A stretch of 64,000 bases of DNA from assembly GCA_946902875.1 (NCBI GenBank), contig OX336337.1, forward strand, positions 4,526,001 to 4,590,000, given 5' to 3'. A program made the translations under genes and the position numbers. The notes beneath the pieces were generated by a model. The model saw only the letters and a list, made by a program, of their open reading frames with translations, was not told the origin of the DNA and searched no databases. Origin of the DNA: Nematopogon swammerdamellus. Its lineage: Eukaryota > Arthropoda > Insecta > Lepidoptera > Adelidae. Shown piece after piece: positions 14,028 to 47,243 of this stretch (its first letter is position 1; the number at the start of each line of letters is the position of its first letter).

Positions 14028-14084
14028 TTAACGTAATCGAAGGCTTTTGTAAAATAATGTTTATACTTTATAAATGTTTTTATG

Positions 14085-15391: not shown

Positions 15392-15779
15392 TCAATACTA
15401 ATAATAAATCTGTAAGGGATTGTCGTGGAGTAAGTTACTTTGTTTTATGCGATACTGCGATTGTACATAGACTCTATGTATGACACTAAAACTAAATTGA
15501 AGATATTTAGAAATATTTTCTGTATGTATGTATGTTACTCCATAACTCTTAAACCGATCATCCGAATTCAATAAAGCTTAGTACAAGGATATTTTACTAC
15601 ACACACAGGGACACGGGATAGGCTAAATAAAATTAAGTTCCGGTTACGCTAAGATGTGGCTCTCATACAAACCCAATTGTTCTGCGCGCCGAAATAAAGG
15701 TACGGTAGGTAGCGGGCTTACTTACTTTCTTCTTTTTAAATAAGAATTTCACGCTAGCGAAGCCGCGGGCAAAAGCTAC
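15392..15779 (+). mobile_element. complete short Helitron
   Basis: Begins TCAATACTAATAATAAATC, then GGGATTGTCGTGGAGTAAG, ACATACATAC-type stretch in reverse order, GACACGGGATAGGCTAAAT and the 3' end GCGAAGCCGCGGGCAAAAGC followed by TAC (expected TAG). 388 bp, no coding. It is the parental architecture of the much larger array-bearing copies at 28071 and 37819. Confidence 0.8.
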
Positions 15780-17556: not shown

Positions 17557-17645
17557 AAATAATCTATAATATGTACATACACACTATTGGTGGCAACGTA
17601 CCCAGATTGCTTAGACTCTCGCTACTCGCTTCTCCGTGAGCAGCA

Positions 17646-17781: not shown

Positions 17782-17805
17782 CGCAGGCCCGAATGCAGAT
17801 GTTAA

Positions 17806-28070: not shown

Positions 28071-29100
28071 CTAGCTTTTGCCCGCGGCTTCGCTCGCGTG
28101 AAATTCGTATTGCAAAGAAAGCAAGTAAGTAACTAAGGGATCTGCGTTAAGTAAGGTAAACGATAAACCTTCTCAACTAAAGTAAGTAACTAACGGCGAG
28201 GCTTCAGGCTGAGCTGCATTCTGGAAGACAATAAACCTTCTCGAAGAAAGTAAGTAACTAAGGGCGAGGCCGAAGGCCGAGCTGCGTTCAGGAAGACGAT
28301 AAACCCACTCAAAGAAAGTAAGTATTGAGGGCGAGGCCGAAGGCCGAGCTGCGTTCAGGAAGGCCATAAACCTTCTCGAAGAACGTAAGTAACTAAGGGC
28401 GAGGCCGAAGGCCGAGCTGCATTCAGGAAAACGATAACCTTTTCGAAGAAAGTAAGTAACAGAGGGCGAGGCCGAAGGCCGAGCTGCGTTCAGGAAAACC
28501 ATAAACCTTCTCGAAGAAAGTAAGTAACTAAGAGCGAGGCCGAAGGCCGAGCTGCGTTCAGGAAGATCATAAACCTTCTCGTAGAAATTAATTAATTGAG
28601 GGCGAGGCCGAAGGCCGAGCTTCGTTCAGGAAGACTATAAACCGTCTTGAAGAAAGTAAGTAACTATCGCCCATAGTTACTTACTGTCATCAAGAAGGTT
28701 TAGTGTCTTCCAGAATACAGCTTGGCCTTCGGCCACGCCTTTAGTTACTTACTTTCTTCGAGAAGGATTATAGTCTTCATGAACGCAGCTCGACCTTAGG
28801 CCTCGCCCTTAGTTACTACTTTCTTCGAGAACTTGTTCGAGAAGGTTGAAGGTCTTCCTGAACGCAGCTCGGCCTTCGGCCTCGCCCTTTGTAGCTTATT
28901 TTCTTCGAATAGGTTTAACCTCTTCCTGAACGCAGCTCGGCCTTCGGCCTCGCCTTTAGTATGTTACTTACTTTCTTTGAGAATGTTTATTGTTTTTATC
29001 TCAATCCAGTTCGCCCTCCGCTCCGGTCCCGGCCTAAGTTACTTAGTTTCTTCTTTTGAAATACGAATTTCACGCGAGCGAATCCGCGGGAAAAAGCTAT
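28071..29100. repeat. palindromic array of ~66-bp units inside Helitron copy 1
   Basis: Left arm (28071 to about 28672) has about seven units containing GGCGAGGCCGAAGGCCGAGC, TGCGTTCAGGAAGA and CCTTCTCGAAGAAAGTAAG. The orientation flips at AGTAAGTAACTAT/ATAGTTACTTACT near 28672, and the right arm (~430 bp) carries about four to five units in reverse. Both outer ends are Helitron 3' ends pointing outward (right one mutated to CTAT). Proline/alanine-rich ORFs here are array by-products. Confidence 0.88.
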
Positions 29101-30251
29101 CGATATTAAAATAAGAAAATTCAATTAAAATAAATCAAATACTTTAGATACCTACCTAAGTAAAATACTCCACATATTAGCATAACCGGAACTGAATTTT
29201 ATTTAGCCTATCCTGTGCCTCGTATAGCTAAATGTGCGTGTACTAATTTTAATCGAATTTAGATGATCGGGTTAAATTTTATGGAGGAAATTCATACAAA
29301 CATATTCGCCTCGCCCCGCTGCCCCCCGCTGAGAGAAGCGCAGCGCTTCTCTCAAGACTTTCTCATCGTCGTAACTTTTTAAACTATTTGTCCAAATTAC
29401 TTAGTGTAACAGCCAAAGTTTATCTACTTTAAATACCAGAAGCGATAAAAGTATGTATTTTGATAAGAATTAATTCAAAACTGTAAAATGTGCATTGTAA
29501 ATACAGTATCCAATTTAAGTGTATTTTTGGTTCACTATTTTGGCTATAGTGGCTTCCACATAAAATGTAGATATATGCTGTCGCGGACTTTTTTTTAGAA
29601 CTATTTTAGAGAAACAACCTCACTATAGACTATCTTCGTGTAACTCTAAAGGTTTATGCAGCGCACGCCGAGATAGCTCTCAGAAGGCAGGATTTTTTCC
29701 GACTTACTTGACATTTATCGATATTTGGGCAAATTTACACAATATAAATTATAGCCTTTTTGATGTATAAGCTATAGTACTGTAAAGGCTCATCAAAATC
29801 TGTTCAGTAGTTTTTGCGTGAAAGAGGAATATAGTGCGGCTGTTCGGTTCGCTGTTGAGTTTATAGGCCGCGCCTCCCCCGCGCCGCCGCACCGTGCCGC
29901 CACGCCGCCGCCAACTGCCGCCGCTCGCTCGGTAAATACCTATGTATAGTACTAAGGCGCGCGGATTGAACATATCGGTTTGTATGGAAGCCACATCTTA
30001 GCGTAACCGGAACTGAATTTTACGTAGCCTATCCTGTGTCCCATATAGTTAAATGTGCTTGTACAAAGTTTCATCGAATTCGGATGATCGGTTTAAGAGT
30101 TATGGCGGAACATACATACATACAGACAGAAAAGATTTCTAAAAATCGTCAATTTAGCTTTAGTATCATACATAGAGGCTACAAACTCAATATTTCCTAA
30201 AACAAAGTAACTTACTCCATGACATACAGATTTATTATTAGTATTGATTGA
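28071..30251 (-). mobile_element. large non-autonomous Helitron, copy 1 (2,181 bp)
   Basis: Minus strand begins TCAATCAATACTAATAA at 30251 and ends AAAAGCTAG at 28071, between A and T of an interrupted S2. TC 5', CTAG 3', A^T target and no target duplication are Helitron hallmarks. The 5' ~1.15 kb contains two direct copies of the GGAACTGAATTTT...CTATCCTGTG module (29170, 30003), a GCCGCC-rich patch (29870-29930) and a TGAGAGAAGCGC hairpin (29330). The 3' kilobase is an inverted tandem array. No Rep/helicase coding. Confidence 0.82.
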
Positions 30252-30412
30252 TGGTCGCATAGCAGCCTCGGTTGTGCTCTCCTCTAGTCCAGTATAGCCA
30301 GCAATCTAGGGAAGTCTCCGGTATGGCACCTACCTTCTCAGAGGTGATATTGGCTGGTCGGAGCATGCGCTTTGGCCCCTCCGACTCAGCCACCTATACC
30401 GGATTACATAAT
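30252..30412 (+). mobile_element. SINE S2, right piece
   Basis: TGGTCGCATAGCAGCCTCGG to GCCCCTCCGACTCAGCCACC, then a tail ending GGATTACATAATAAAA. Second half of the S2 copy split by the Helitron. Confidence 0.88.
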
Positions 30413-30860
30413 AAAACAAATAAAAACATAACCGTTTCAATAAATATTTGAAAACAAACAAATTTATCTCGTGTCGCTCAACAGATGCTGTCGAATTACC
30501 AACACACAGACCCAGCCTTTGACAGAATGTGTAAACAGACACGAACAAATGACGCGTGGTAGGGGCCCACGGCCCACGGCACGAGAGGCAGCGACCCTGG
30601 GTCTCTTGCCCCGTGTCCTGTGTGGCTCGTCAATAAATAATGTTGTTTACTTGAAGGGCTGCACTATCAATTACCTCCTTAGGACGAGAGGAGTCAGGTC
30701 GCACCCGACTACGTCTTATCTACGGGGCGATATTTCACTTACAAAATTCAATTTAAGAATGTGGACAAACTTGCGTCGACTTCGGCGTGGCATGCGGAAT
30801 AAATAGGTAAGTGTAGAATGCGCGAAGTTGAAAATATGCAAGATTTTTATACTACTAAAT
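30413..30860. other. unassigned
   Basis: ORF 30471-30806 (111 codons, plus) lacks any recognisable motif and overlaps an antisense ORF. Nothing else seen. Confidence 0.35.
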
Positions 30861-32185
30861 ACGTGATGATTCGTGACGTAGCACACTTTACGTGAAATGA
30901 TTCGCGACGTAGCACACGCTACGTGGAATGATTCGCGACGTAGCAGACGCTACGTGGATTGATTCGCGACGTAGCACTTGCTACATGAAACTGTTGGTGG
31001 CGTACATTGAGAAATAAATACGTCTATGGTGGCGTAGCAAGATCTATTTGGAGTGTAGCGCTTGCTACACTAAATTAGTGGGGTCGCAGCACCTGCTACG
31101 CGAAACTATTTGTGGCGTAGCAAGATCTATTTGTAGTGTAGCACTTGCTACACTAAATAAGTGGGGTCGCAGCATCTGCTACGCGAAACTATTTGTGGCG
31201 TAGCAAGATCTATTTGTAGTGTAGCACTTGCTACACTAAATAAGTGGGGTCGCAGCATCTGCTACGCGAAACTATTAGTGGCGTAGCAAGATCTATTTGT
31301 AGTGTAGCACTTGCTACACTAAATAAGTGGGGTCGCAGCATCTGCTACGCGAAACTATTTGTGGCGTAGAAAGATCTATTTGTAGTGTAGCACTTGCTAC
31401 ACTAAATAAGTGGGGTCGCAGCATCTGCTACGCGAAACTATTTGTGGCGTAGCAAGATCTATTTGTAGTGTAGCACTTGCTACACTAAATTAGTGGCGTC
31501 ACAGCACCTGCTACGCGAAACTATTTGTGGCGTAGCACTCGCTATGCGGATTGAGCCGCTAGCGCTTGGCTTGCTTGTTGCTTGCGCTTGTCGCAACATT
31601 CGCTACGCGAAATACTTGTGGGATAGCACTTGCTTCACGAAATTATTGGTGACGTAACATTCGCTACGCGAAATGATTTGTGGCGCAGCAATCGCTACGC
31701 AATTATTATTTTTTTATTTGTATTTTTTTATGTAAACCAACATGAGTGGCTGTGCCGAGGGACCAATAATGGTGCAGTCGACAGAGCCAAAAACACCTCT
31801 TCTCGCGAAACCACGCTCAGAGAGGCACCATGCCAGCAGATTTGCGGACTGTTGCTAGGCTGTCCAGTCTGTTAATACGACGTTTGAAGGCACGCAGTTT
31901 AAAGTATTCGGGAAAAACACTCGCCGGAAGACAGTTCCACACACTAGCGGCGCGACAAAGAAAATGGTGCTCATAAGCCCAATGTCCACAACAAAAGGAT
32001 GTTCAGTTTCCCTGCGGCGTATTCTGTGAAGATAGATTGGATGGCAAGGAATAAAGCACGCATGTTTTATTTGTAGCGTAGCACTTGATACACAAAATTA
32101 TTGATGTCGCAACACTCGCGAAATGATTTTTACCGTAGAGTTCGTACGCGGAATAATTTGCCGAATACCAGTTGCTATGCAAACA
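30861..32185 (+). repeat. satellite of palindromic GTAGC/GCTAC modules, 83-bp higher-order unit
   Basis: GGCGTAGCAAGATCTATTT recurs at 31031, 31113, 31197, 31280, 31363, 31446 and (variant) 31529: six units of 82-84 bp, the middle ones nearly identical. Each unit holds inverted modules such as GTAGCACTTGCTAC. Flanks (30861-31030, 31530-31720, 32066-32185) are shorter diverged modules like GATTCGCGACGTAGCACACG. An LB insertion splits the array at 31722. Confidence 0.92.
31722..32065 (-). pseudogene. LINE LB: RT C-terminus and 3' end, inserted in satellite
   Basis: Minus strand encodes RRRETEHPFVVDIG, then after frameshifts SVWNCLPASVFPEYFKLRAF and KRRINRLDSLATVRKSAGM, then the UTR GAGCGTGGTTTCGCGAG and a tail ending GTTGGTTTACATAAAAAA. 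This is the longest LB copy. The W-N-x-L-P-A-S-V-F-P motif places it in the Jockey/CR1/R1 group. Satellite modules continue on both sides. Confidence 0.8.
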
Positions 32186-32721
32186 TTTTATTTTAAGATA
32201 ATTTAAAGATAGATATTTCCTTTGTAATAATATTTGCTCCGCCGAGGGGTAAACAATCTGAGTGTTGCCACAATTTCAACCGGTTCCGGAAGTTGAGGGG
32301 AAAAGGTTTATTTGTGTGGCACTTTTCCCGTTATTCAAACTTGACATAAAATCTACGAACAATGCTTTTCCCGGGTTATAATTCTCTTACATTTTCGCTT
32401 CAGAAATAATACGAAATTTTATTCTATTTCAAATGTTTTTATATTTTTTATTTGTATTTTTTTTAACCAATGTGAGTGGTTGTGTGTAAATTATTTATTG
32501 AACTACAAATGTGAGTATAATAGAAAGAGAAAGAAAAGGTACAGTATTTAAGGATATTATTAAAAGTCATGTTATGCGCGAACGTTGTTCAGACACAGAG
32601 GGTTCCGTAGCCACTTCCTTCGCCACAGATAGCACGCACTCGCAGCGATCCACAGTAGTCGCACCGTGCCTCCGTCCGGCCCACGGCCGGCGCCGCACTG
32701 CAGTTCACTAAAATGATATTT
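32186..32721. other. AT-rich, unassigned
   Basis: No gene or repeat recognised. A GC-rich patch lies at 32630-32700. Confidence 0.4.
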
Positions 32722-32802
32722 TTTGACATCACGGATGTTGTAGATGCTGACATCACGGATGTTGTAGGTGATGTAGCCAACCGTGTCCATTTCCATAAAA
32801 AA
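32722..32802 (+). mobile_element. SINE S1 3' fragment with internal duplication
   Basis: GACATCACGGATGTTGTAG occurs twice, then GTGATGTAGCCAACCGTGTC and a CATTTCCATAAAAAAAA tail. Confidence 0.8.
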
Positions 32803-32842
32803 AAAGATGTAGAGATATATTTTTTACATTTATTGAGCTTTC

Positions 32843-33155
32843 ATTTTTAGGTTTCCGTATCCCGTACGGAAGCCTATTACTAAGCCTCCCCGTCCGTCCG
32901 TCTGTCCGAGGGCTGTATCTCTTGAACCGTAATAGGTAGCCCGTTAAAATTTTCACAGAATATGTGTCAGATTAGGTTAATATCAGCAAATAATAAAAAA
33001 AAAAAAGAAAATGTTAAAAATTAAGGGGGGCTCCCATACAACAAACGTACCAAAAAACTGAATAATAGATGGCGCCACAGGCTTTTATACATTGCATTGC
33101 TGAAAGACAAAAGATAGGCGATAGATACGGAAACCTCCGTGCGCGAGAGATTTTT
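32843..33155 (-). mobile_element. MINE copy
   Basis: TTTCCGTATCCCGTACGGAA, (GTCC)n at 32890-32910, AATAGGTAGCCCGTTAAAAT, GGGGGGCTCCCATACAACA, GATGGCGCCACAGGC, CGGAAACCTCCGTGCGCG. Confidence 0.85.
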
Positions 33156-33290
33156 GAATAATCAAATTGGACAGCGTGTGCGACAGACAGATGAAACGAC
33201 GCGACGGACAGATACGTGACCGATTCTATAAGGCTCCCTGCGGACGTGGCTGACTACGAAACCCTGAAAAGAACGCACAGTTTAGTTGAC

Positions 33291-33431
33291 AAATAATGCG
33301 TATCGAGCTTTAGAAAGAGACAAATCCGGTTGTAGAGCGTCGTCCCTGTCGCACGCACTGGCAAGTCTCTGCGACAGGGACGACGCTCTACAACCGGATT
33401 GTCTCTTTCTAAAGCTCGAAACGCATTATTT
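33291..33431. repeat. 141-bp hairpin element
   Basis: Arms of ~62 bp: left starts AAATAATGCGTATCGAGC and contains GAGCGTCGTCCCTGTCGCA; right (33370-33431) is its complement with two to three differences. The central spacer is ~17 nt. Looks like a foldback MITE. Confidence 0.88.
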
Positions 33432-33475
33432 CGCGGTCTTCCGCTCTTCTCATCCATCCACTCCCGGAAAAATTA
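33432..33475 (-). mobile_element. RTE 3' end scrap
   Basis: CGCGGTCTTCCGCTCTTCTC then ATCCATCCACTCCCGG: reverse of the RTE end, directly against the hairpin element. Confidence 0.6.
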
Positions 33476-33489
33476 TTAATTAATATTAA

Positions 33490-33860
33490 AAAAAAATATG
33501 CAAAGCGCGACATGTGGCATCTTTTCACCTACGAGTAGGTGACTTACGATGCCCATGGACATTCTGTGATGCACGGGGATTGCGAATTCCATGCCGACCT
33601 GACAGAAGCCTTTTCACGCCCCCTTTGAAAAACCCCAGGCTGTACTTGGGAGGAAATAGATGAGCAGGGAGTGCGTTCCACAATTTCCCGGTTCTGTGAA
33701 TAAAAGGCCTACAGAACCGGTTGGTGCCCATCCTCGGTAGGTCGATTGTTTAAGGGTGCATCCCCTGCCCAGTACGCTAGTCCGGAGGTGGAATGGGGAC
33801 GATGGAATCGCGTTAAACAGCTCCTCCGAACATTCCCCGTGAAATAAACGATAGACGATT
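33490..33860 (-). pseudogene. LINE LA: RT C-terminus and 3' end
   Basis: Minus frame NRFCRPFIHRTGKLWNALPA then HLFPPKYSLGFFKGGVKRLL, with HGECSEELFNAI and SSPFHLRTSVLG upstream in another frame near 33800-33840. The 3' tail is GCCACATGTCGCGCTTTGC. Frameshifts break the RT. Best LA reference in the window. Confidence 0.75.
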
Positions 33861-34294
33861 CTCCCATGTAAATCGGCACAATGGTGCTTGAAACTGAGTC
33901 GGCACTTTCGCTCGCTGGATATAATGATTGGGAATTATTTGTGATTAGAAGATGTGGCTAGATTATTAGTGTAGTGGCTACAAACAGTGTTAAATTTCAT
34001 GTATATAAAAAAATATGTTGTCGTTTGTACCTATATGTAATAAAATATACCTTGTTATTTCAAGAGACTTCGTTGAAGTCAGAATAACAGATTGAAGTTA
34101 AACAAAAAAAAGTTATTTGTAATTCGATACAAAATCCAATACTCTATTTTGCAGAAGCGTATTTCAATATAAGCTAAATATTTCTCATAATAAAAACAAT
34201 TCAGCACCTACGCCAAAGAAAAATAAAATTATGTAGAGCTTACAGGTCAACAATTCAAAGCGACGCCTATTAATTCTGAGCGTAAAATAATAAT
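33861..34294. other. AT-rich, nothing recognised
   Basis: No ORF, repeat or structured element seen. Confidence 0.4.
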
Positions 34295-34435
34295 AAAAAA
34301 TTGTGATTTTTCAGGTGCTTCGTGCCTTACTTGCTGCTTTTGATAGGTTATAATTTGTCCAAATACTTTGCGAAACGTGTTGGTCGGTGTTGTGCTCCGA
34401 TTGTCCGGATACAGTGTGTGGTATGTATGTATGTG
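34295..34435 (+). mobile_element. repeat R3, 3' part
   Basis: TTCGTGCCTTACTTGCTGCT, AATACTTTGCGAAACGTGTT, GATTGTCCGGATACAGTGTG, GGTATGTATGTATG. Confidence 0.7.
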
Positions 34436-34526
34436 ATTTCAAGTACATGTATCAAAAATATCCTTAAACAGCTCACGGTTTAAATTCGATTTGATATTAT
34501 TGTTTAAATGTTTCATTCACTGTATC

Positions 34527-34828
34527 AAACACAGTACTTGGATGGGTGAACGTTCGAACGTTGGCGGCTGACCGTGGCTCGGATTCCACGTTAAACTGTA
34601 GGTCCCTTCCCTTCTTACCTTACTAGGCGGCAGGTTTTATCCCGACCGGGTTGATACCACCGCACTGAGCGAAACGTCGGTCGAAACGGCTATGTAAATA
34701 GTCCGTGTTTTCCGTCCAGTTCAGTGAAGCCGTCGCGAAATGAAGAGAAGCATTGACATGGCACCTAGTTCACCCGGTGTTATGGGCTGGTGATGATGGG
34801 TAGGTGATGTACCCAACCGTGTCAGTGC
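34527..34828 (+). mobile_element. SINE S1 with tRNA/5S-like head, 5'-truncated
   Basis: Starts within the 5S-like part (CAGTACTTGGATGGGTGAAC), then a T-arm-like CGTGGCTCGGATTCCACG, core hairpin (GGCGGCAGG...GGGTTGATACCACCG) and a diverged 3' end. No poly-A. Confidence 0.8.
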
Positions 34829-35107
34829 GTATGCGTGTACGCGCTTTAGAAGTATACTTCTCCCCCCTCATCATCTCTATCCCTCTTCCCCCTCTCCGCC
34901 TATCTCGCCCCCTCCCCTTTCCACCTACTTGTATAATGTACCCGGTACACAGGTTGACTCGCCTGCGGCAGACATTTTGAAATGATTTCGGACCCGGGGG
35001 GTTTGCCACCTCGTACGAGACACATGACATGAATTTCATTTGACAAGAATTTGCATACTATATGTGTGCGAGCATATTCAAGAAGCGTATGCGTGCACAA
35101 ATAAGTA

Positions 35108-35494
35108 CTTTTTTATGGTTCCGTATCCGGTACGGGACCCTAATTACTAAGCCTACGCCGCCGTCTGTCTGTCTGTCTGTCAGAGGTATCTCTTGAACCG
35201 TAATAGGTAGCCCGTTGAAATTTTCACAGAATATGTGTTATTATGGCCGATATAATAACAAGTAATAAAAATAAGAAAAAGTAAAAAAATCACGGGGCTC
35301 CCCATACAAGAAACTAAAAAGTGTATGCGCGCCATCTACCGAAACGAGTATGAAGCATTTTAACTAATCATGAATTTTAACTAATATGAAGCATTTCATA
35401 AACACGCCATAGATGGCGTGAGTGGCGCTGACCATGACATGGCGATACGGAACCCTCGGTGCACGAGTTCGACTTGCGCACTTGGCCGGTTTTT
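35108..35494 (-). mobile_element. MINE copy, full length
   Basis: From GGTTCCGTATCCGGTACGGG through (GTCT)n at 35163-35180, AATAGGTAGCCCGTTGAAAT and GGGGCTCCCCATACAAGAA to GCACTTGGCCGG. It contains a tandem-like ATGAAGCATTTTAACTAAT duplication around 35350-35400. Confidence 0.85.
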
Positions 35495-35712
35495 TTATTA
35501 CACCCGAACTGTGTGGCTATGCTCCAGATCGGAGTCTAAGGCAAAGCCAATTTCACCACCGAGGAGGTGGCAGTCCAGCTTGTGGGCGGACTAAAGTCGG
35601 TTTAGGAAATGCTATTAATCAGCGATTTGAAGATCTGTTGATTGTAGGAGTAGACGAAGATATTATTCCTCGGAAACCTATTCCACACCTTTGCAGTGCG
35701 ACACAAAAACGA
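35495..35712 (-). pseudogene. LINE RT C-terminus with S2-like 3' tail
   Basis: Minus strand reads CRTAKVWNRFPRNNIFVYSY then NQQIFKSLINSIS and a stop near 35612. The following UTR contains TGCCACCTCCTCGGTGGTGA, AATTGGCTT and TAGCCACACAGTTCGGG ending TGTAATAAAAA. S2 has the closely similar GGCACCTACCTTCTCGGAGG, TGATATTGGCT and CAGCCACCCATACCGG. It is a candidate partner LINE for S2. Confidence 0.55.
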
Positions 35713-36092
35713 TTTTTTATGGACCCTGACACGGTTGGCTACATCACCTACAACATCCGTGATTAAAGCCCATAACACCAGGTGAACTAGGTGCCACGTC
35801 AGTGCTTCCCTTCATTTCATGTCGGCTACACTGAACTGGATGGAAAACACGAACTATTTACATAGCCGCTTCGACCGACGCGACGTTTCATTTAGTGCGG
35901 TGGTACCAACCCGGGCGGGATAAACCCTACCACCTAGTAAGGTAAGTAGCGAAGGGATCTACAGTGTTACGTGGAACCGAACCACGGTCAGCCTCCAACG
36001 GTCGAGCGGTCACCCATCCAAGTACTGACCGCGCTCGGGGTTGCTTAACAACAGTCGACCGACCGCACCACTGAGCTACTGAGGCTGACATT
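35713..36092 (-). mobile_element. SINE S1 with tRNA/5S-like head, full length
   Basis: Minus strand from 36090: arm GTCAGCCTC, box A TAGCTCAGTGG, 5S-like AAGCAACCCCGAGCGCGG then TCAGTACTTGGATGGGTGAC, complementary arm GAGGCTGAC (35988), and a T-arm-like GTGGTTCGGTTCCAC (35971). Core hairpin and tail follow to the poly-A at 35713. 380 bp; the reference copy for this head type. Confidence 0.92.
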
Positions 36093-36299
36093 ATTTTCGG
36101 AGATGTATTTATTTCTTCTGTTGACTACAAAGTATGGTGCAAGAGATGGCGGGGTTTGGCTAATGTGACCAGGAGGAGGGATAAGGGAAGCGATTTCCTC
36201 AGAACAGCGGCCATAGCAGTACCGGTAAAACCGGCTTAATGATCCAACTAGGATCCAACGATGCGTCTGTGCTTCAGTGGTATTTGTTTTTGTTTAATT

Positions 36300-36560
36300 T
36301 AATTTGTATTTTTTGTACATACATACATGCATAGCGTCACGTCTTTTTCCGAGTGGGCTAGGCAGAGACAACGGATCACCACGTGCCACGATCCTGATAC
36401 ACCTATGCCGCCACTTCCACTCCCATAATGTTCTTCATGCATATGCTCCTCGGTTACGGGTACTATGTGCTTGATCCTTTTTGAGCATATGCCCGATCTG
36501 GTCCAGGTACGTGCGTCTAGGGCGAACCTTCCCGACTCTTCGTTATAGCCTAAAACCATC
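36300..36560 (-). repeat. dispersed lepidopteran-type repeat (GTAGGCAGAG family) and Helitron-like piece
   Basis: CATACATACATGCATAGCGT, GGGCTAGGCAGAGACAACGG, CCACGATCCTGATACACC and GGGCGAACCTTCCCGACTC resemble a common lepidopteran repeat that I know by eye. 36548-36660 (TAAAACCATCTTGAGAAGTC, TATTGACGTACGTTACACGG) matches 56018-56150. Confidence 0.45.
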
Positions 36561-36660
36561 TTGAGAAGTCACAGAACGTATCAGTAAAAACCGTATGTAA
36601 ATCGATAAAGTAGTTCTCGAGTTATAGGTATATTCATATATTGACGTACGTTACACGGTC

Positions 36661-37000
36661 TCACTTAGAAACTTCGCTTTATTTATACGAACTTCGTTTT
36701 ATGGATACGAACCATAGATCAATAATCCGCTTTCATGACTGAAATTCACTTAGCAAACTCAAAATGTGAAGTATAGTGATGCACGAAAAAGGGTTTCGAA
36801 CTCATCCCCTCCCGCAAACAAAGTTCTACTTGTTTACCTTCACTGGTGAGAGTAGATCGTATTTCCTGTTCGCTTTGGCGTATTTTTTCAGCGCTACATG
36901 GGCCCGCGGGAATGTTAATGTTAGTATGCAATTCCATTCCTCCTCCAATTTCCGATTCTCTTCTCTATTGTCACTACTATGCTCTATTTTTAGGGTTAAT
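36661..37000. other. no feature recognised
   Basis: Overlapping short ORFs on both strands without motifs. Confidence 0.4.
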
Positions 37001-37043
37001 GTATAATGGTACCCACCAGCGACGCTGGTGGGTACCATTATAC
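37001..37043. other. perfect 43-bp palindrome
   Basis: GTATAATGGTACCCACCAGC plus G pairs with the 21 nt that follow a single A at 37022. No mismatch. It stands alone before a MINE copy. Confidence 0.9.
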
Positions 37044-37084
37044 AATTGATCAGGTGTCTGTCCGTCTGTCCGTGGTAATAATTA

Positions 37085-37464
37085 AAGCCGGCTAAGTGCG
37101 AGTCAGACATGCGCACCGAGGTTTCCGCACCACAAAAAAAAGCATGTTTCTTGTATGGGGACCCCCCTTGAATTTTTCACTTTTTCAAGTTTTTACTATT
37201 TGTTATTATATCCGCCAAAATAACACATATTCTGTGAACATTTCAACCGCCTAGCTATTCAGATAGACGTTGTAGGTTTAGGCCCACTTGCACCAACACG
37301 AATTTAACTATAAACCAGTTTAACTCGTTAAACTAGCACCCGTTGTATGTGGGAACCGCGTTTGAACCGCGTTTAAATCCATAACTCGCTATTTAACTCT
37401 AAACTCGTGTTGGTGCAAGTGGGCATTAGTCATAGGCTTCCGTACGGGGTACGGTAACCTAAAA
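37085..37464 (+). mobile_element. MINE copy with PIF-type MITE inside
   Basis: CGGCTAAGTGCGAGTCAGAC, TTGTATGGGGACCCCCCTTG, TAACACATATTCTGTGAACA; interrupted at 37281-37425; ends CTTCCGTACGGGGTACGG. Confidence 0.8.
37281..37425. mobile_element. PIF/Harbinger-type MITE, TTA target site
   Basis: TIR GGCCCACTTGCACCAACAC, flanked by TTA on both sides. Interior TTTAACTCGTTAAACTAGC and AACCGCGTTTAAATCC. About 145 bp, no coding. Copies at 39685 and 44124. Confidence 0.88.
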
Positions 37465-37514
37465 TGACTCTTATGAGAATGATTATGTATGTAGGTTTCA
37501 TAATAATATAATAT

Positions 37515-37725
37515 ATAGCTTTTGCCCGCGGCAAAAGAAAGCGAGCTTAAAAAGAAGAATGTAAGTAAGCCCGCTACCGTACCTTTATTTCGGCGCGCGG
37601 AAAAAATGTAAATTTAGTTTTAGTATCATACATAGAGCCTACAAACGTAGTATCTCATAAAACAAAGTAACTTACTCCATGACTATCCCTTACAGATTTA
37701 TTATGAGTATTGATTGATTGATTAA
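37515..37725 (-). mobile_element. Helitron, internally deleted
   Basis: GCTTTTGCCCGCGGC near 37518, CCCGCTACCGTACCTTTATT, then a jump to TAGTATCATACATAGAGCC and the 5' end TCAATCAATCAATACTCA (minus). Confidence 0.75.
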
Positions 37726-37818
37726 CGTATGTTAGACGCGTGTGATACAGGAAGATACTATAACATTTCATCTTAGGGCATCGTAAGATAAAATAAAATA
37801 TAATATCTTTATAGTGTA

Positions 37819-39382
37819 CTAGCTTTTGCCCGCGGCTTCGCTCGCGTGAAATTCGTATTTCAAAGAAAGCAAGTAAGTAACTAAGGGATCTGCGTTAAGT
37901 AAGGTAAACGATAAACCTTCTCAACTAAATTAAGTAACTAACGGCGAGGCTTCAGGCTGAGCTGCATTCTGGAAGACAATAAACCTTCTCGAAAAAAGTA
38001 AGTAACTAAGGGCGAGGCCGAAGGCCGAGCTGCGTTCAGGAACACGATAAACCCACTCAAAGAAAGTAAGTAATTGAGGGCGAGGTCGAAGGCCGAGCTG
38101 CGTACAGCAAGACGATAACCTTTTCGAAGAAGTAACAGAGGGCGAGGCCGAAGGCCGAGCTGCGTTCAGGAAGACGATAACCTTTTCGAAGAAGTAAGTA
38201 ACAGAGGGCGAGGCCGAAGGCCGAGCTGCGTTCAGGAAGACCATAAACCTTCTCGAAGAAAGTAAGTAACTAAGGGCGAGGCCGAAGGCCGAGCTGCGTT
38301 CAGGAAGACTATAAACCTTCTCGAGGAAATTAAGTAATTGAGGGCGAGGCGGAAGGCCGAGCTGCGTTCAGGAAGACGATAAACCTACTCAAAGAAAGTA
38401 AGTAATTGAGGGCGAGGCCGAAGGCCGAGCTGCGTACAGCAAGACTATAAACCTTCTTAAAGAAAGTAAGTCACTGAGGGCGAGGCCGAAGGCCGAGCTG
38501 CGTTCAGAAAGACGATAACCTTTTCGAAGAAGTAAGTAGCAGAGGGCGAGGCCGAAGGCCGAGCTGCGTTCAGGAAGACTATAAACCTTCTCGAATAAAT
38601 TAAGTAATCGTGGCCAAGGCCGAAGGCCGAGCTGCGTTCAGGAAGACTATAAACCTTCTTGATGAAAGTAAGTACCTAACTCAGGGCGAGGCAGAAGGCC
38701 GAGCTGCGTTCAGGAAGACGATAACCTTTTCGAAGAAAGTAAGTAACAGAGGGCGAGGCCGAAGGCCGAGCTGCGTTCAGGAAGACCATAAACCTTCTCG
38801 AAGAAAGTAAGTAACTAAGAGCGAGGCCGAAGGCCGAGCTGCGTTCAGGAAGATCATAAACCTTCTCGAAGAAATTAATTAATTGAGGGCGAGGCCGAAG
38901 GCCGAGCTTCGTTCAGGAAGACTATAAACCGTCTTGAAGAAAGTAAGTAACTATCGCCCATAGTTACTTACTGTCATCAAGAAGGTTTAGTGTCTTCCAG
39001 AATACAGCTTGGTCTTCGGCCACGCCCTTAGTTACTTACTTTCTTCGAGAAGGATTATAGTCTTCCTGAATGCAGCTCGAACTTAGGCCTCGCCCTCAGT
39101 TACTACTTTCTTCGAGAACTTGTTCGAGAAGGTTGAAGGTCTTCCTGAACGCAGCTCGGCCTTCGGCCTCGCCCTTTGTTGCTTATTTTCTTCGAATAGG
39201 TTTAACCTCTTCCTGAACGCAGCTCGGCCTTCGGTCTCGCCTTTAGTATGTTACTTACTTTCTTTGAGAATGTTTATTATTTTTATCTGAATCCAGTTCG
39301 CCCTCCGGTCCCGGCCTAAGTTACTTAGTTTCTTCTTTTGAAATACGAATTTCACGCGAGCGAATCCGCGGGAAAAAGCTAT
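37819..39382. repeat. palindromic ~66-bp-unit array inside Helitron copy 2
   Basis: Left arm 37819 to about 38960 has about 15 units of the GGCGAGGCCGAAGGCCGAGC type; the centre ATAGTTACTTACT is near 38960; the right arm ~420 bp. Compared with copy 1 the left arm has roughly doubled while the right arm length is unchanged. Confidence 0.88.
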
Positions 39383-39684
39383 CGATACTAAAATAAGAAA
39401 ATTCAATTAAAATAAATCAAATACTTTAGATACCTACCTAACTAAGTAAAATACTCCACATATTAGCATAACCGGAACTGAATTTTATTTAGCCTATCCT
39501 GTGTCTCGTATAGCTAAATGTGCGTGTAGTAATTTTAATCGAATTTAGATGGATTAATTTTATGGAGGAAATTCATACAAACATATTCGCCTCGCCCCGC
39601 TGCCCCCCGATGAGAGAAGCGCAGCGCTTCTTTCACGACATTCTCATCGTCGTAACTTTTTAAACTATTTGTCCAAATTACTTA

Positions 39685-39819
39685 GCGCGTCTTGCACCAA
39701 CACGAGTTCAGAGTTAAATAGCGAGTTATGGATTTAAACGCGGTTCACACATACAACGGGTGCTAGTTTAACGAGTTGAACTAGTTTATATATTGAACTT
39801 GTGTTGGTGCAAGTGGGCC
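39685..39819. mobile_element. PIF/Harbinger-type MITE inside Helitron copy 2
   Basis: Left TIR is mutated (GCGCGTCTTGCACCAACAC); right end GTGTTGGTGCAAGTGGGCC. TTA on both sides. Helitron copy 1 has the empty site CAAATTACTTAGTGTAAC near 29396. Confidence 0.9.
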
Positions 39820-40683
39820 TTAGTGTAACAGCCAAAGTGTATCTACTTTAAATACCAGAAGCGATAAAAGTATGTATTTTGATAAGAATTAATTCAAAAC
39901 TATAAAATGTGCATTGTAAATACAGTATCCAATTTAAGTGTATTTTTGGTTCACTATTTTGGCTATAGTGGCTTCCACATAAAAGGTAGATATATGCTGT
40001 CGCGGACTTTTTTTTAGAACTATTTTAGAGAAACAACCTCACTATACACTATCTTCGTGTAACTCTAAAGGTTTATGCAGCGCACGCCGAGATAGCTCTC
40101 AGAAGGCAGGATTTTTTCCGACTTACTTGACATTTATCGATATTTGGGCAAATTTTCACAATGTCTTTATAAATTATAGCCTTTTTGATGTATAAGCTAT
40201 AGTACTGTAAAGGCTCATCAAAATCTGTTCAGTAGTTTTAACGTGAAAGATGAATATAGTGCGGCTGTTTGGTTCGCTGTTGAGTTTATAGGCCGCGCCT
40301 CCCCCGCGCCGCCGCACCGTGCCGCCACGCCGCCAACTGCCGCCGCTCGCTCGGTAAATACCTATGTATAGTACTAAGGCGCGCGGATTGAACATATCGG
40401 TTTGTATGGGAGCCACATCTTAGCGTAACCGGAACTGAATTTTATGTAGCCTATCCTGTGTCCCATATAGTTAAATGTGCTTGTACAAAGTTTCATCGAA
40501 TTCGGATGAACGGTTTAAGAGTTATTGCGGAACATACATACATACATACATACATACAGAAAAGATTTCTAAAAATCGTCAATTTAGCTTTAGTATCATA
40601 CATAGAGGCTACAAACTCAATATTTCCTAAAACAAAGTAACTTACTCCATGACCACCCCTTACAGATTTATTATTAGTATTGA

Positions 40684-41408
40684 TGTGACTCGCTTCTGGC
40701 TGCATTCCAACTCAACCAGCATACATCTTTGTACTTTACTGTATAATTTCAAAACGTGCAAGGTCGATCGCAAGAGCTTTTGAAACTTAGCTCCGTGAAG
40801 TTAGCTACGCGCCAGCCCTTCCCGATTGGACCCCAAATTGGTCTACAGCGAGGCTTTTAGGGTTATTTCAGAGCGACAAAGTAAGCCTGCGCTGGATGTA
40901 TGCAGCTAACAAAGATTTACGAGCCTTGCTCGCTTGTTGGACACATTGTAAGTGGAAATTATGACGGACGAAAAGTAGTGTTCTGAGGGGAAAATTCCCT
41001 GCGGATATTTCTCTGTTTAAAATACGCAGGAAATGGCTAGAGAGGAGTTAATCAAAGCAAACTGAGGATGTGCTCAACAACTGAGGATGACTGAGGGCAT
41101 ACTTTAAGGTGATGTGAGACTGCGTCTGACTCGAATTTCAAGAAGTGTACCGCCAATATTACTTACCTGACAGATTCAGTTTTAATATATGTAAAACTTC
41201 ATCTATCAGCGCAGATCGATAGCTTTTTGAAAACACGATTTGATTAACTTCGCTTAAAACAATTTCGTCAGTACACTTGTGCATACGCATAAGTGTACTC
41301 TTATACCCGCAGTATCAGTTTTTTTTTAAATAAAAATACTTAAAAGTGTATCCGTCAATCCATCGATTTTGTATCCCATGTTCCTAATATTCTTGCATGC
41401 ATTATACA
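40684..41408. other. no feature recognised
   Basis: Mixed sequence, no ORF over 60 codons or repeat that I recognise. Confidence 0.4.
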
Positions 41409-41798
41409 TTTTTTTTTATGGAAACTGACACGGTTGGCTACATCACCTACAACGTCCGTGATGTCAGCCCATAACACCGGGTGAACTAGGTGCCATGTCA
41501 GTGCTTCCCCCTTTGATCGTGCCGGCTACACTGAACTGGTCGGAAAACACAAACTATTTACATAGCCGTTTTGACCGACGTTTCATTCAGTACGGTGGTA
41601 CCAACCAGGGCGGGTTAAACCCTACCACCAAGTAAGATTAGGAGGGAAGGGACCTACAGTTTTACGAGGAATCCGAACCTCGGTCAGCCTCCAACGGTCA
41701 GCGGTCACCCATCCAAGAACTGACCGCACCCAGCATTGCTTAACATTCAATAGCGACAGTTGACTGTCTGCATCACTGAGCTATCGAGGCTGACAAAT
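41409..41798 (-). mobile_element. SINE S1 with tRNA/5S-like head, full length
   Basis: Poly-A at 41409; head near 41790: GTCAGCCTCGATAGCTCAGT, then a diverged 5S-like part and GGTTCGGATTCC box B. Core hairpin present. Confidence 0.9.
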
Positions 41799-43435
41799 TG
41801 ATTTTTGTAGTAATATATTTATAACAAATAGGTAGGTTTTTGTTTTTTGTGTAGAGTACAAATACATTTTGTTTTTTCATTTTTATTTATTTTGGGGAAA
41901 CATTGTGCTTCTTATAAACCAGTAAAGTTTCTACAATTAGGCTAAAAATAAGAGAGAAAAGAAAAATAGAAAAATATATATGTATATAAAAAATTTATAA
42001 TTTATTTTGAACACACAGTAAGCATTTAAGCATAAGTATCAGTAAGTATGTATATGATTTGCTCAAGAAGCCAGTCTTCGTTTGTACCTGTACGTGCGAT
42101 GGGCTCTGCCTATAATCGTGTTATGCGAACGCACAGAGGGATTGCGACGATCTTCCCCCCACATCTCTACCGGCTGAGTGGTCGGATATAGGCCAAATCC
42201 AGAAAGCAGTGTTTCTCAAAGGGACCGGATAAGTCCGGATCTATGCTCTTGTTGGAACCGGTTCTATTTTTGTTTATATTTGTATAAATTTTATATGCGA
42301 ATAAGTCGAATTTATTAGAAACGATCTAACGGACTACTTTGTCCTTAGAGTTTGAGGGACATACTTGACGATGTCACTTTATACTTGAATGTATTCTTTT
42401 TGACGTGATGATGTCAAGTCTTATAAATTGATGAACACCGGCTGCACGCACGAAGAAGTGTAACGTTCCATCTAAACCTGTGTGTGCAAGCGAGAGCGCG
42501 ATAGAGACCTGTGTGTGCAAGCGAGACCGCGATAGAGAGGCATATACAATAGTAGGAAATACAAAACATATTTCTCCGTCTTTTGCGAGCCTCGAACCCG
42601 CGGTCCCTGCCACCATCACTGACCAGACGTTTTATCCAAGCGGGCTATCGACCGTCTACTTATCGCTGCAAATTTTCTCAACAGTATGTGAATTTCATGG
42701 AGCGACATCTAGAGTCTTCATCTAGCGTCAATATTAAATTAAATACTTCAGCCAGCGGTATACTTGATTTAGCAGTTAGGTAATTGTTTCAACGTTGAAC
42801 ATGTAGATGGCGTTATGTAGGTTTTTTAAATATAAATTTAAAAAAAAATTAATAGTCGTTATTTTCTCATATTTTTATTAGTTATTATCACATCTTTATC
42901 ATGTACTTAAATTAATTTTACATGGTAAATATCCGCCGGAACTGATTTACTTTATGACATCATCACGTAAAACTATCGTCCGTAAACCAACTTTACAGAC
43001 AACCAATTTTTTTATTCCTACTTGACTCGAAACAAGGATGTATTGTTTAATTATTCCCATCTGACTTTGATCAGCCCCTATTTACGAGGTCGTTATGTTG
43101 TCATAACTAATTAAGCGCAAAATATGTAACGACATATAAGTGGTCCTCGATTCTATGTTCGATTAAAACTAGAGCACCAATCCATAAATTCATGTGGGAC
43201 TTATAAAAATAAAAAAACCGTTCAGCTGTTCTAGAGTTGTTATAAGCGAATAACATGCAGACGGCAGACGTTGAATTAATGAATAAACTCTAAACAATGA
43301 GGAATATATACATTAAAGAATGAAAGATCATTCTCGTTTTACCAATCTATTGTATTATAATACACTTTATGCCACTTAACGCGTGGCAAGGGCGGGCTTA
43401 TTGCCTTAGGCAATTTCCTCCAGTCAACCCGGTAG
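41799..43435. other. mostly unassigned
   Basis: 42476-42537 has a 32-bp direct duplication (CCTGTGTGTGCAAGCGAG). 42583-42655 minus is tRNA-like (GATAGCCCGCTTGGATAAAA, then GCGGGTTCGAGGCTCGC). The remainder is AT-rich without features. Confidence 0.4.
42583..42655 (-). repeat. tRNA-like SINE head
   Basis: Box-A-like TAGCCCGCTTGGATAAAAC, then CGCGGGTTCGAGGCTCG as box B 40 nt later. No functional tRNA fold with a 3' acceptor is apparent, so SINE origin is more likely than a tRNA gene. Confidence 0.4.
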
Positions 43436-43439
43436 ACCT

Positions 43440-43592
43440 ATATTTTTACATGGAATCCGAACCATGGAGCAGTGGGTGAAGGTGTGCAAATTTTTTTTTC
43501 AACTCTCTAAAAAACTAAATTTTTTTCATTAAAACTGATTGGAGGATTCGAACCTCGTATCTCTCAGACGACTCGGCCACCCGCCCCGCCTA
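43440..43592 (-). mobile_element. tRNA-headed SINE, diverged (S2-like)
   Basis: Minus strand: GGGCGGGTGGCCGAGTCGTC (box A), GAGATACGAGGTTCGAATCC (box B), an A-rich stretch, then TTTGCACACCTTCACCCACT. The head is close to S2; the body is not kept. Confidence 0.6.
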
Positions 43593-44123
43593 TTCTTTAG
43601 TTATTCGAAACTGTATTATTTTTATTATCTTGCCTCGAGGAAAAGATCTGTTTCGTAAATGGCCGATACTTTAACCCTCAAACGCGTCAAAAGACGGATC
43701 GTTTTCAACAATGAATAGGCGTCTGGTTAGTGAGTAATGGTCTCTCATCAATCGGATCACTGAGGCGCGTCTATACGTCACTACTGCCAAGACTGATCAC
43801 TCCACCTATTCTTGCACAGAGCTATAAGATTTGACACATCTAGACCTTAAATCGGAAGAATTGAAAAATATAGAAACGTTGCTATCATGCAAAACATATT
43901 CTCATTTAAATTTTTATTTCGCCTTATTGAAATGGTTTTAAATGTTAAATAATATTAGTTTTTAGTCCCGCACCGTCACTCATATTAACTTAATAAATCG
44001 GCTTACCGGTCCGGGTCCCATAGAGGACTCGAAACGTCGAGCTGCAGCGATGCGCTCGCCATCATTGCACCGGTATTTATGTAATTTAAATTTATTTTTA
44101 TTTTATTTATTGCGGTAAACTTA
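43593..44123. other. no feature recognised
   Basis: AT-rich with a short GC patch at 44005-44060. Confidence 0.4.
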
Positions 44124-44268
44124 GGCCCACTTGCACCAACACAAATTTAATATATAAACCAGTTTAACTCGCTAAACCAGTTTAAGCTAGCACCCTTTGA
44201 CTGTGGGAACCGCGTTTAAATCCATAACTCGCTACTTAACTTTAAACTCGTGTTAGTGCAAGTGGGCC
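44124..44268. mobile_element. PIF/Harbinger-type MITE, TTA target site
   Basis: TIRs GGCCCACTTGCACCAACAC and GTGTTAGTGCAAGTGGGCC, TTA at 44121 and 44269. 145 bp, same family as 37281. Confidence 0.9.
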
Positions 44269-44950
44269 TTACAGTGTAAGGACTTAAATATAAACATACA
44301 AATATAATTCACAGGACACCAATTACAAGTTTACGTATTTATGTATAGTTATAGTAGATAAGTAAGGCAACGAAAAAAGTACGAAAAAATAACACAAATA
44401 ATGAAAACAAAATACATAGTTACACAAAAACATTACTTACACAAATTATTACTTAAAAACTAAAATAATCCTAAAACATTCTACTGCATCGCGAAAGCAC
44501 TTCTAAATTTATTCTTAAGTACAGTAGGGCTCGTGCAAAACAAATGATATAATTATTATAACGTTCAAATTTAACTAAACTAAATAATTAAACTTTAGAT
44601 TAAATATTACTTAACTAAACTTAGATTATATAAAAATCTACAATAAATCTTTAAATATTTTAATTTCAGTAGCCTACCGACTGCAAGTAAAATATTTCAT
44701 CCAACTCAGCCGACTCCGCCACAGTGCCCAATTAAATTTATAATTTAACTATATGATATTACGATTTTAATTATTAGACTGTAAGCGGTGTCATTTTGTG
44801 GCTAGTCACTAAATTACTTGTAAAAATATGTATAAAAAATAAAATACCCTGCGAAGTTTCTTCCCGGTTCTTCTTCGTGGGTGTAATCGAACCGGGTAGA
44901 ACAAATTGTCACAAGTTCGAGCGCAGTCTAACTGCCTTATGAATGATCAA
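44269..44950. other. AT-rich, unassigned
   Basis: 44857-44905 repeats the motif CGAAGTTTCTTCCCGGTTCT seen reversed at 8360 and 63515. Otherwise nothing. Confidence 0.4.
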
Positions 44951-45705
44951 TCTATACATATAATAAAATCGTAGAGGTAAGAAAGTCTGTACATTGAATG
45001 TATTCGGAAAAAAACTAACCAGGGTGGCTTAAAATGAGATAGTAAACATGTTAGAACAGTTTTTAAAATTTTTGTTTGTTTGTTTGTTTGTCTGTACGCG
45101 CATCACGCAAAAACCACTGAACGGAATTAGACGAAACTTTGTATAGTGGCAGTTTATATGCCGGGTTAACATAATACGTAAAAAAAATAACAAAAATAAA
45201 AAAAAATAACAATTATAAACATTATTGCGCGTTTAAAATCACGTAGTCCAAAGTACATAATTATATCTTGAGAACTGGCAGCAAATACAATTTGAATAAA
45301 ATATTCATTCGAAATTTAAAAATAAGTAGATACAACGAAAATGACAGTTCTTCTTTTTTATAACTTGAACACAATAGTCTATACATATCTATTCTTTCTA
45401 TAAATATCATAAAAACGTAAATGCAAAAATGTCTATTTGTACGCGCATCTCGCAAAAACCACTGAACGGAATTTGACGAAACTTTTTATAGTGACAGTGT
45501 ATATCCCGGATTAACGTAATAATTAAAAAATATAATAAAAATCACGTAATCCAAAGTAAAGATAAAAAACAATTTTAAATGTCATGTTGACAACGGAGAA
45601 CTGTCATCTCGACGTGAGCTGGCCGGTGACAAATTGTTTGATAAATAAAAATAATAATTGAAAGTCGAAGTTATGTCGCTGTCATTGGTGCAATAAAATT
45701 TATAT

Positions 45706-47243
45706 ATCTGTTGCCCGCGGCTTCGCTCGCGTGAAATTCGTATTTTAAAAAAAGACAGTAAGTACTAAAGGCGGGCCCGAAGTCGGATCTGCGCTCACGT
45801 AAACGATATTCTTTCTCGATGAAAGTAACTAAGGGCGAGGCGGAAGGCGGAGCTGAGTTCAGGAAGAAGAAAAACATTTTTGAGGAAAGTAAGTAACTAA
45901 GGGCGAGGCCGAAGGCCGAGCTCTATTCTGGAAGACCATAAACCTTCTCGAAGAAAGTAAGTAACTATGGGCGAGGCCGCAGGCTGAGCTGCGTTCAGGA
46001 AGAAGCTAAACCATCTTGAAGAAAGTAAGTAATTAAGGAGAGGCCGAAGGCCGAGCTACGTTCGGATAATTGAAAAACCATCTCGAAGAAAGCAAGTAAT
46101 TAAGGGCGAGGCTGAAGGCCGAGCTGCGTTCAGGAAGAAGCTAAACCATCTTGAAGAAAGTAAGCAACTAAGGCGAGGCCGAAGGCCGAGCTACGTTCTG
46201 ACAAATGATAAACCATCTCGAAGAAAGCAAGTAACTAAGGGCGAGGCCGAAGGCCGAGCTGCGTTCAGGAAGAAGCTAAACCATCTCGAATAAAGTTAAT
46301 TAATATTAAGATTGAGTTAATTTAATTTAAATTTTATTATAACGTCCACGCTTCTAACGGCAAATATACCGTGCATCCTAGAACCTCGCGGTTATTCCCG
46401 GCTGGATGGCAAGAGGCCCGATGCTATCACCTTAGTGCCATGGACTAAGGGTAGTTCTTTGATGTGGGACGCCACTTTTGTTCTCACATTGGCTCCAAGT
46501 CACGTTAGGACATCTTCAAGAGCGGCTGGCGCGGCCGAGGCTGGGGCGGAGAGCCTCAAACGCAGCAAATTATAGAAATATAATTCAAGATTTCGAATTT
46601 GTTGCGTTTGCGGTTGAAACCCTCGGTCCGTGGAGCAGTGAAGCCAAAAGAGGCTTGAGCTGGTTGACGCAACTGGTGTCCCGCCATCAAGGGCTTATGT
46701 ACTTCATTCAAAGAGTAAGCCTTGCCATCCAGCGGGGTAATGCCGCAAGTGCTCTAAGAACATTTGAAAATGCCCGTTTTGATAGTTATTTTAATGTTTG
46801 TTAGGTAGGTTTAATTCTTTAGTTATTAATATTACTTTTTTATTTTTATGAAATAAATCGATTGAGTAAACGATATTATATACTATCGAAGAAAGGAAGT
46901 CTTTAAGGGCGAAGCCCGAAGGCGGAAGAGGGTTTTTGGTTTACCTGAACACAGCTCGGCCTTCGGCCTCGCACTTAGTTCCTTCCTTTCTTCCAGAAGG
47001 TTTATCGTCTTCCTGAATGCAGCTCGGCCTTCGGCCTCGCCCTTAATTACTTCCTTTATTTGAGAAAGGTTTATCGTTTACCTGAAAGCAGCTCGGCCTT
47101 TGGCCTCGCCCTTAGTTAGTTACTTTCTTTAAGAAGGTTTATCGATTACCTGAACGCAGCTCGGCCTTCGGCCTCGCCCTTAGTTACTTACATTCTTCTT
47201 TGGAATACGAATTTCACGCGAGCGGAGCCGCGGGCTCAGCTAG
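45706..47243. repeat. inverted array with a 570-bp central insert
   Basis: Left arm 45706-46305 with GGCGAGGCCGAAGGCCGAGC units; right arm 46868-47243 with GCTCGGCCTTCGGCCTCGCC units; outer ends GCCCGCGGCTTCGCTCGCG and its complement. Confidence 0.85.
46384..46866 (+). pseudogene. captured 3' end of a retroelement-type gene
   Basis: The first frame reads RPDAITLVPWTKGSSLMWDA then TFVLTLAPSH; a shift near 46560 leads to FVAFAVETLGPWSSEAKRGL, FIQRVSLAIQRGNAASAL and a stop at 46804, followed by a 3' UTR with GAAATAAATCG. I associate the RPD...VPW...WDAT...ETLGPW...RISLAIQRGNAAS order with a C-terminal region in invertebrate reverse-transcriptase proteins, possibly nuclease-like (from memory, unverified). 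It is frameshifted, so not functional. Its position exactly between two array arms suggests capture. Confidence 0.6.

What the first reader, a model, noticed from the sequence alone, without database searches (positions are those of the whole stretch)
28071..47243. Three Helitrons whose 3' kilobase is a giant palindromic tandem array
28071-29100, 37819-39382 and 45706-47243 each consist of ~66-bp units in one orientation, a turn-round, and units in the other orientation, bounded on both outer edges by outward-facing Helitron 3' ends (GCGAGCGAAGCCGCGGGC). The array sits at the 3' side of an element with TC 5' and CTAG 3' termini. Copy 1 is inserted exactly between A and T of an S2 SINE; copies 1 and 2 have unrelated flanks, so the whole hairpin-bearing unit moved. 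I know of no described Helitron class with this design. A possible origin is rolling-circle read-through into an inverted second 3' end, followed by unequal expansion.
Basis: partly seen in the sequence, partly recalled or inferred. Interest (0 to 1): 0.87.

Follow-up and report, generated by a model that had tools for sequence, protein, structure and literature searches.

The report
Jumping genes with palindromic satellite tails
Three rolling-circle jumping elements (Helitrons) in what is probably a moth or butterfly genome end in head-to-head arrays of a 68-base repeat capped by two opposite Helitron 3' ends, so each likely moved as a single unit carrying a second, inverted 3' end as a passenger.

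Summary
The elements are 28071-30251 (minus), 37819-40683 (minus) and 44951-47243 (plus), each starting TC and ending CTAG. In each, the last 1.0-1.6 kb is an array of ~68-bp units in one orientation, a turn, then units in the other, with a Helitron 3' end on both outer edges. Copy 1 splits a SINE exactly between A and T with no target duplication; copy 3 has a weaker empty site; copy 2 has none in the window. Copies 1 and 2 share body, inverted arm and turn at about 98% identity and have different flanks, so the whole unit moved. The inward-facing 3' end lacks CTAG in all three; the outer one keeps it. The arms are 77-83% alike; tests for a mirror match across the turn are mixed. On balance I read it as a composite non-autonomous Helitron with an inverted second 3' end inside it; an old fold-back duplication is the main rival. 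It is a new variant of a known kind. Paper searches listed no such design. Whether it is a class stays open: the genome server did not complete.

The parts
28071..30251 (-). Copy 1, whole element: 5' TC at 30251, 3' CTAG at 28071; 2181 bp
   Evidence: Flanks rejoin into an uninterrupted SINE; related SINE copies read straight through
28071..28666 (-). Copy 1 outer (3'-terminal) arm: 7 full units plus partial units, intact CTAG end
28667..29099 (+). Copy 1 inner arm: 4 full units plus partial units, inverted; 3' end without the final G of CTAG
29100..30251 (-). Copy 1 body, with an internal direct duplication of 5'-region sequence (134 columns, 83.6%)
37819..40683 (-). Copy 2, whole element: same ends and body as copy 1, unrelated flanks
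37819..38953 (-). Copy 2 outer arm: 15 full units
38954..39381 (+). Copy 2 inner arm, unit-for-unit counterpart of copy 1's
   Evidence: 419 of 429 aligned positions alike
44951..47243 (+). Copy 3, whole element with another body: A|TC at 44951, CTAG|T at 47243
   Evidence: related repeat at 8292-8456 as empty site, moderate evidence
45704..46927 (-). Copy 3 inner arm: inverted 3' end at 45713-45730, 7 full units and a partial one, broken by a foreign piece at about 46297-46861
46942..47243 (+). Copy 3 outer arm: 3 full units and a shorter one, CTAG end
15392..15778 (+). Array-less small relative of copies 1 and 2: same 5' region and 3' end (itself without the final G), no array

Best explanation
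Each of the three is a non-autonomous Helitron (5' TC, 3' CTAG, placed between A and T) whose array-bearing 3' end carries a second array-bearing Helitron 3' end in inverted orientation, probably left by an oppositely oriented Helitron that lost its 5' half, and the composite likely then moved as one rolling-circle unit. Shown: the ends, the exact insertion of copy 1, the two opposed arrays, the shared palindrome in copies 1 and 2 with different flanks, and the missing inner CTAG. Inferred: a Helitron transposase supplied in trans copies from TC. The inner 3' end lies on the wrong strand, so it is ignored, and copying ends at the outer hairpin and CTAG. The inner arm is a passenger. The outer array changes length by duplication of blocks of units. 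Untested: whether the long single-strand hairpin has any role in termination or second-strand synthesis.
For: Empty sites for copy 1 with exact A^T and, more weakly, for copy 3. Body, inner arm and the outer arm's two ends differ about equally between copies 1 and 2 (98.1, 97.7, 98.8 and 98.8% alike in aligned positions), so they travelled together. Inner 3' ends lack CTAG in 3 of 3, outer ends keep it in 3 of 3. In copies 1 and 2 both edges of the inner arm read as a Helitron in an A^T site, A|TC...CTA(G)|T (sequence). Arms are 77-83% alike. The turn falls in different parts of the unit in the two lineages (sequence). Bat Helitrons are reported that took over the 3' end of a neighbouring 5'-truncated Helitron (PMC4778049, passages).
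Against: A mirror match across the turn, as a fold-back would leave, is not excluded. In copy 2 the in-register pairing scores best of 13 offsets, 348 against 321. The third and fourth inner units share 2 and 3 unusual states with their mirror partners in copy 2; the four together share 6, which ties for the highest of 12 registers and is reached by 9.6% of random assignments. In the unit tree the third inner unit falls, weakly, in a group that holds its mirror partners. Copy 1 shows no such preference. The inner arm of copies 1 and 2 starts inside an array unit, without a Helitron 5' region, so a 5' deletion must be assumed. Copy 3's turn shows no A^T signature. A single-ended array-less relative also lacks the final G of CTAG, so that loss alone does not prove disuse. 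No copy lacking only the inner arm was found. The window has no open frame over 165 aa, so no transposase source is seen.
Confidence: 0.55

Rival explanations
1. Fold-back origin: during copying the strand switched to its complement inside an array unit, making an inverted duplicate of one 3' end and its array; the arms then diverged.
For: The turn in copies 1 and 2 is a tight palindrome, GTAAGTAACTAT CGCCC ATAGTTACTTAC. In copy 2 the register at the turn scores best of 13 offsets, and the third and fourth inner units share unusual states with their mirror partners, among them a 4-base insertion at one place. The third inner unit falls weakly with its mirror partners in the tree.
Against: In copy 1 another register scores better, 360 against 342, and shared states show no preference (3; 56% of assignments as high). 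In copy 2 two other registers tie with the mirror one. The first two inner units show no special tie to their mirror partners. The last 100 bases of the two ends are only 87% (copy 1) and 83% (copy 3) alike in aligned positions. It does not by itself explain the TC body beyond the inverted end.
Confidence: 0.28
2. A foldback-type terminal-inverted-repeat transposon: the two-ended module is itself the mobile element, inserted in Helitrons.
For: Long inverted termini built of tandem repeats, as in Tetris (PMC4079207, passages).
Against: Copy 1 has no target duplication, and its empty site needs the whole TC...CTAG element removed. Both edges are Helitron 3' ends that occur singly elsewhere in the window. 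Copies 1 and 2 share the body and the outer boundary.
Confidence: 0.05
3. An accident without any class: one composite Helitron (copies 1 and 2) plus an unrelated neighbour (copy 3), in a region where Helitrons pile up.
For: Only three copies, in one 64-kb window; many other Helitron 3' ends nearby.
Against: Copy 3 repeats the layout with another body and another turn, and has its own, weaker, empty site.
Confidence: 0.1

Closest known systems
Canonical Helitrons of Lepidoptera (Hel-2/BmHel-2; PMC4344730, passages)
   Same: TC and CTAG ends, A/T flanks, 3' hairpin, small non-coding copies
   Different: The passages describe a 5' inverted repeat, subterminal inverted repeats and internal microsatellite or tandem arrays, not an inverted second 3' end with a palindromic array
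HINE/DINE-1 Helentrons with satellite-like arrays (PMC4067079, passages and one section; PMC7492417, passages)
   Same: Non-autonomous rolling-circle elements that carry satellite-like arrays
   Different: Drosophila DINE-1 prefers T-T targets; in the oyster, arrays lie in one orientation 'without exception'. Here the target is A-T and the arrays lie in both orientations
Tetris and other foldback transposons (PMC4079207, passages)
   Same: Opposed tandem arrays; array units share a stretch with the element's own end
   Different: Terminal inverted repeats with 8-10 bp target duplications; here a TC 5' end, a CTAG 3' end and no duplication
Bat Helitrons with de novo 3' ends (PMC4778049, passages)
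   Same: Adoption of a neighbouring truncated Helitron's 3' end
   Different: No inverted array-bearing partner in the passages read

Membership tests
Canonical Helitron | 5' TC terminus | tested here: met
   3 of 3 elements
Canonical Helitron | 3' CTRR (CTAG) terminus | tested here: met
   Outer ends 3 of 3; inner ends 0 of 3
Canonical Helitron | Insertion between A and T, no target duplication | tested here: met
   Copy 1 by two SINE copies, copy 3 by one weaker site. Copy 2's flanking letters agree, but its flanks have no related copy in the window
[quoted passage not shown]
   Stem CGCG-A-GC/GC-CGCG predicted for copy 1, but the five ends folded are no better than shuffles (z 0.04 to -1.17)
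Canonical Helitron | Rep/helicase gene (autonomous members) | tested here: not met
   No open frame over 165 aa in the window; no such Pfam match in 10 of its 21 frames of 110 aa or more. So at most non-autonomous
HINE/DINE-1 Helentron | T-T target (Drosophila DINE-1) | tested here: not met
   A^T at copy 1
HINE/DINE-1 Helentron | Array in one fixed orientation (oyster HINEs) | tested here: not met
   Both orientations in 3 of 3
Foldback TIR transposon | Target-site duplication | tested here: not met
   None at copy 1
Foldback TIR transposon | Inverted repeats at both termini of the element | tested here: not met
   In copies 1 and 2 the 5' terminus is a TC body; only the 3' module is inverted

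The most novel reading that the evidence does not exclude
Palindromic-satellite Helitrons are a recurrent class: opposed arrays were assembled at least twice, and the hairpin of several hundred bases that forms when the strand is displaced is part of how these elements stop or prime second-strand synthesis, making them rolling-circle counterparts of foldback transposons and seeds of inverted satellite DNA.
Probability: 0.15. Interest if true: 0.78.

Novelty: new variant of a known kind. Interest (0 to 1): 0.5.

Why it matters
If the layout is common, Helitrons can carry kilobase palindromes made of satellite units to new sites. That would link rolling-circle transposition to the spread of inverted satellite arrays and fragile palindromes. 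It also gives a natural test of whether the strand position of the 3' terminator matters: here an inverted terminator sits inside elements that evidently still moved.

Tried and rejected
Genome-wide census: the window's own assembly was asked for the 3' motif 14 times with the same request and never answered. Pattern scans found nothing in viral contigs or prokaryote contigs; these collections may leave out records near the window's genome. A protein search with an array-derived open frame found no relative among 24 candidates. The idea that each array unit is a copy of the 3' terminator hairpin got no support (p 0.92 on one strand, 0.20 on the other); the unit does share 17 exact bases with the subterminal AGTTACTTACTTTCTTC (0 of 500 shuffles). 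An invertible cassette, where either end could serve as terminator, was set aside because the inner CTAG is missing in 3 of 3. Mirror colinearity of the arms: mixed. Copy 2's flanks have no related copy in the window beyond chance-length matches of 14-24 bases.

Paper searches: ten answered. Eight were aimed at the design (one search found no paper) and two at relatives (36, 54). No listing showed a palindromic-array Helitron. I saw passages of six papers, five from the listings and one fetched by DOI (PMC4778049), and one whole section of PMC4067079.

The third does, weakly. I therefore ran and moved the odds (nested origin 0.60 to 0.55, fold-back 0.22 to 0.28, the two others down slightly).

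Full report
What is there. The window (GC 41%) holds three places with arrays of ~68-bp units in two opposed orientations. A profile of one unit found 40 full units, all inside the three places: outer and inner arm 7 and 4 in copy 1, 15 and 4 in copy 2, 3 and 7 in copy 3. Arm against reversed arm scores 372, 371 and 305; no shuffle of 100 each passed 30. Copy 1's arrays fold as single-stranded DNA at -311.8 kcal/mol against a mean of -122.5 for 20 shuffles; the centre of copy 2 at -308.9 against -123.4. One arm alone folds no better than shuffles (96 of 100 as good). The same two arms put head to tail fold at only -93.6, against -305.3 for the natural order.

The elements. Copies 1 and 2 lie on the minus strand at 28071-30251 and 37819-40683; copy 3 lies on the plus strand at 44951-47243. 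All three start TC and end CTAG, with A before and T after. Copy 1's flanks join into an uninterrupted SINE, and other SINE copies in the window read straight through the join (four aligned, two scored); there is no target duplication. Copy 3's left flank is a repeat whose other copy, at 8292-8456, continues with letters like those to the right of copy 3. The gain from the true right flank was reached by 1 of 1761 control stretches, and by 1 of 214 in the AT-rich subset; I did not check where that one control lay. The right-hand match is short and AT-rich, and the right flank alone finds no BLAST match there, so I rate this as moderate evidence. A second TC-like start at 45397 was considered; it is preceded by T, not A. 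Copy 2's flanks have no related copy in the window.

Copies 1 and 2 moved as wholes. In aligned positions their bodies are 98.1% alike (1117 of 1139), their inner arms 97.7% (419 of 429), and the outer arm next to the turn and at the 3' end 98.8% each, while their flanks are unrelated. The turn is the same in both: GTAAGTAACTA TCGCCCA TAGTTACTTAC. The inner arms correspond unit for unit. The outer arms differ, 7 against 15 full units, with blocks of units repeated inside copy 2 (338-bp period). Length change since the split is therefore seen only in the outer arm.

The inner ends. The outward 3' end inside the element reads ...GCTA then T in copies 1 and 2, and ...GATA then T in copy 3; the outer end reads CTAG in all three. 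In copies 1 and 2 the inner end also has a changed hairpin base. This suggests that the inner end is not used, which speaks against an invertible terminator. A caution: the array-less relative at 15392, which has a single end, also lacks the final G.

Origin. In copies 1 and 2 the inner arm could be an inverted Helitron in an A^T site: its left edge is A|TC and its right edge is CTA(G)|T. The two arms are 77-83% alike. Whether they mirror each other is unsettled. In copy 2 the mirror register scores best of 13 offsets (348, next 321); in copy 1 another register is better (360 against 342). Counted by shared unusual states, copy 2's mirror register reaches 6, tied with two other registers of 12 and reached by 9.6% of random assignments; copy 1's reaches 3, as do 56% of assignments. 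Most of copy 2's signal comes from its third and fourth inner units. In a tree of the 40 units (66 columns, mostly weak forks) the inner-arm units of copies 1 and 2 pair with each other; the first falls with a copy-3 unit, the third weakly in a group that holds its mirror partners, and the second and fourth with none. Copy 3 has another body, of which only short pieces match copies 1 and 2, at 71-82%, and its turn lies after the TTCAGG part of the unit instead of after GTAACTA (sequence). So either the layout formed twice, or one old module was reshaped. On balance I favour an inverted, 5'-truncated Helitron beside or inside an array-bearing Helitron, followed by movement of the composite, at 0.55 against 0.28 for a fold-back. 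Reported bat Helitrons that took over the 3' end of a neighbouring truncated Helitron show that such composites can arise (PMC4778049, passages). The same paper reports that the 3' hairpin acts as terminator and can be bypassed.

Where the unit comes from. The unit shares 17 exact bases with the sequence just inside the 3' end (0 of 500 shuffles as good) but not detectably with the terminator. A small array-less relative at 15392-15778 has the same 5' region and 3' end, so the array may be an addition to this family.

Known kinds. By ends and target these are canonical Helitrons, non-autonomous: the window has no open frame over 165 aa, and 10 of its 21 frames of 110 aa or more, the ones scanned, gave no Rep/helicase match (one weak zinc-ribbon match below its cut-off elsewhere). 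They fail the tests for Drosophila DINE-1 (T-T target; PMC4067079, passages), for oyster HINEs (arrays in one orientation without exception; PMC7492417, passages) and for foldback transposons (target duplication; PMC4079207, passages). The opposed-array layout resembles a foldback element but is carried by a rolling-circle element. The listings of ten paper searches, eight of them aimed at this design, showed no such element; the library is open-access only.

Host. Nineteen of the 40 proteins related to the foreign piece in copy 3 are named as Pararge aegeria gene models, which agrees with a lepidopteran host but does not name it.

Limits. Everything rests on three copies in 64 kb. The assembly could not be searched, so frequency, age and recurrence are open.

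Noticed in passing
46297-46861: Foreign piece inside copy 3's inner arm with an open frame at 46463-46804; no Pfam family, 40 related proteins, 19 of them named as Pararge aegeria gene models. Possibly the 3' part of a retroelement (recalled resemblance, not tested).
   Followed up: partly
39691-39827: MITE-like insert in copy 2's body, absent from copy 1; related copies at 37280-37419 and 44116-44262.
   Followed up: no
31029-31537: About six tandem 83-bp units 97% alike, beside a 31-bp array at 30866-30984, about 0.8 kb from copy 1's 5' end.
   Followed up: no
8678-8693, 9101-9118, 14890-14907, 22512-22527, 62870-62885(-): Further Helitron 3' ends, or near matches to them, without arrays; the region is dense in Helitrons.
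   Followed up: partly
37517-37717: Very short degenerate member of the copy 1/2 family (5' region at its right end, 3' end at its left), about 100 bp from copy 2's 3' end.
   Followed up: no
33291-33431; 17643-17784; 13627-14031: Self-complementary stretches (142 columns 92%, 144 columns 85%, 423 columns 75%), away from the arrays.
   Followed up: no
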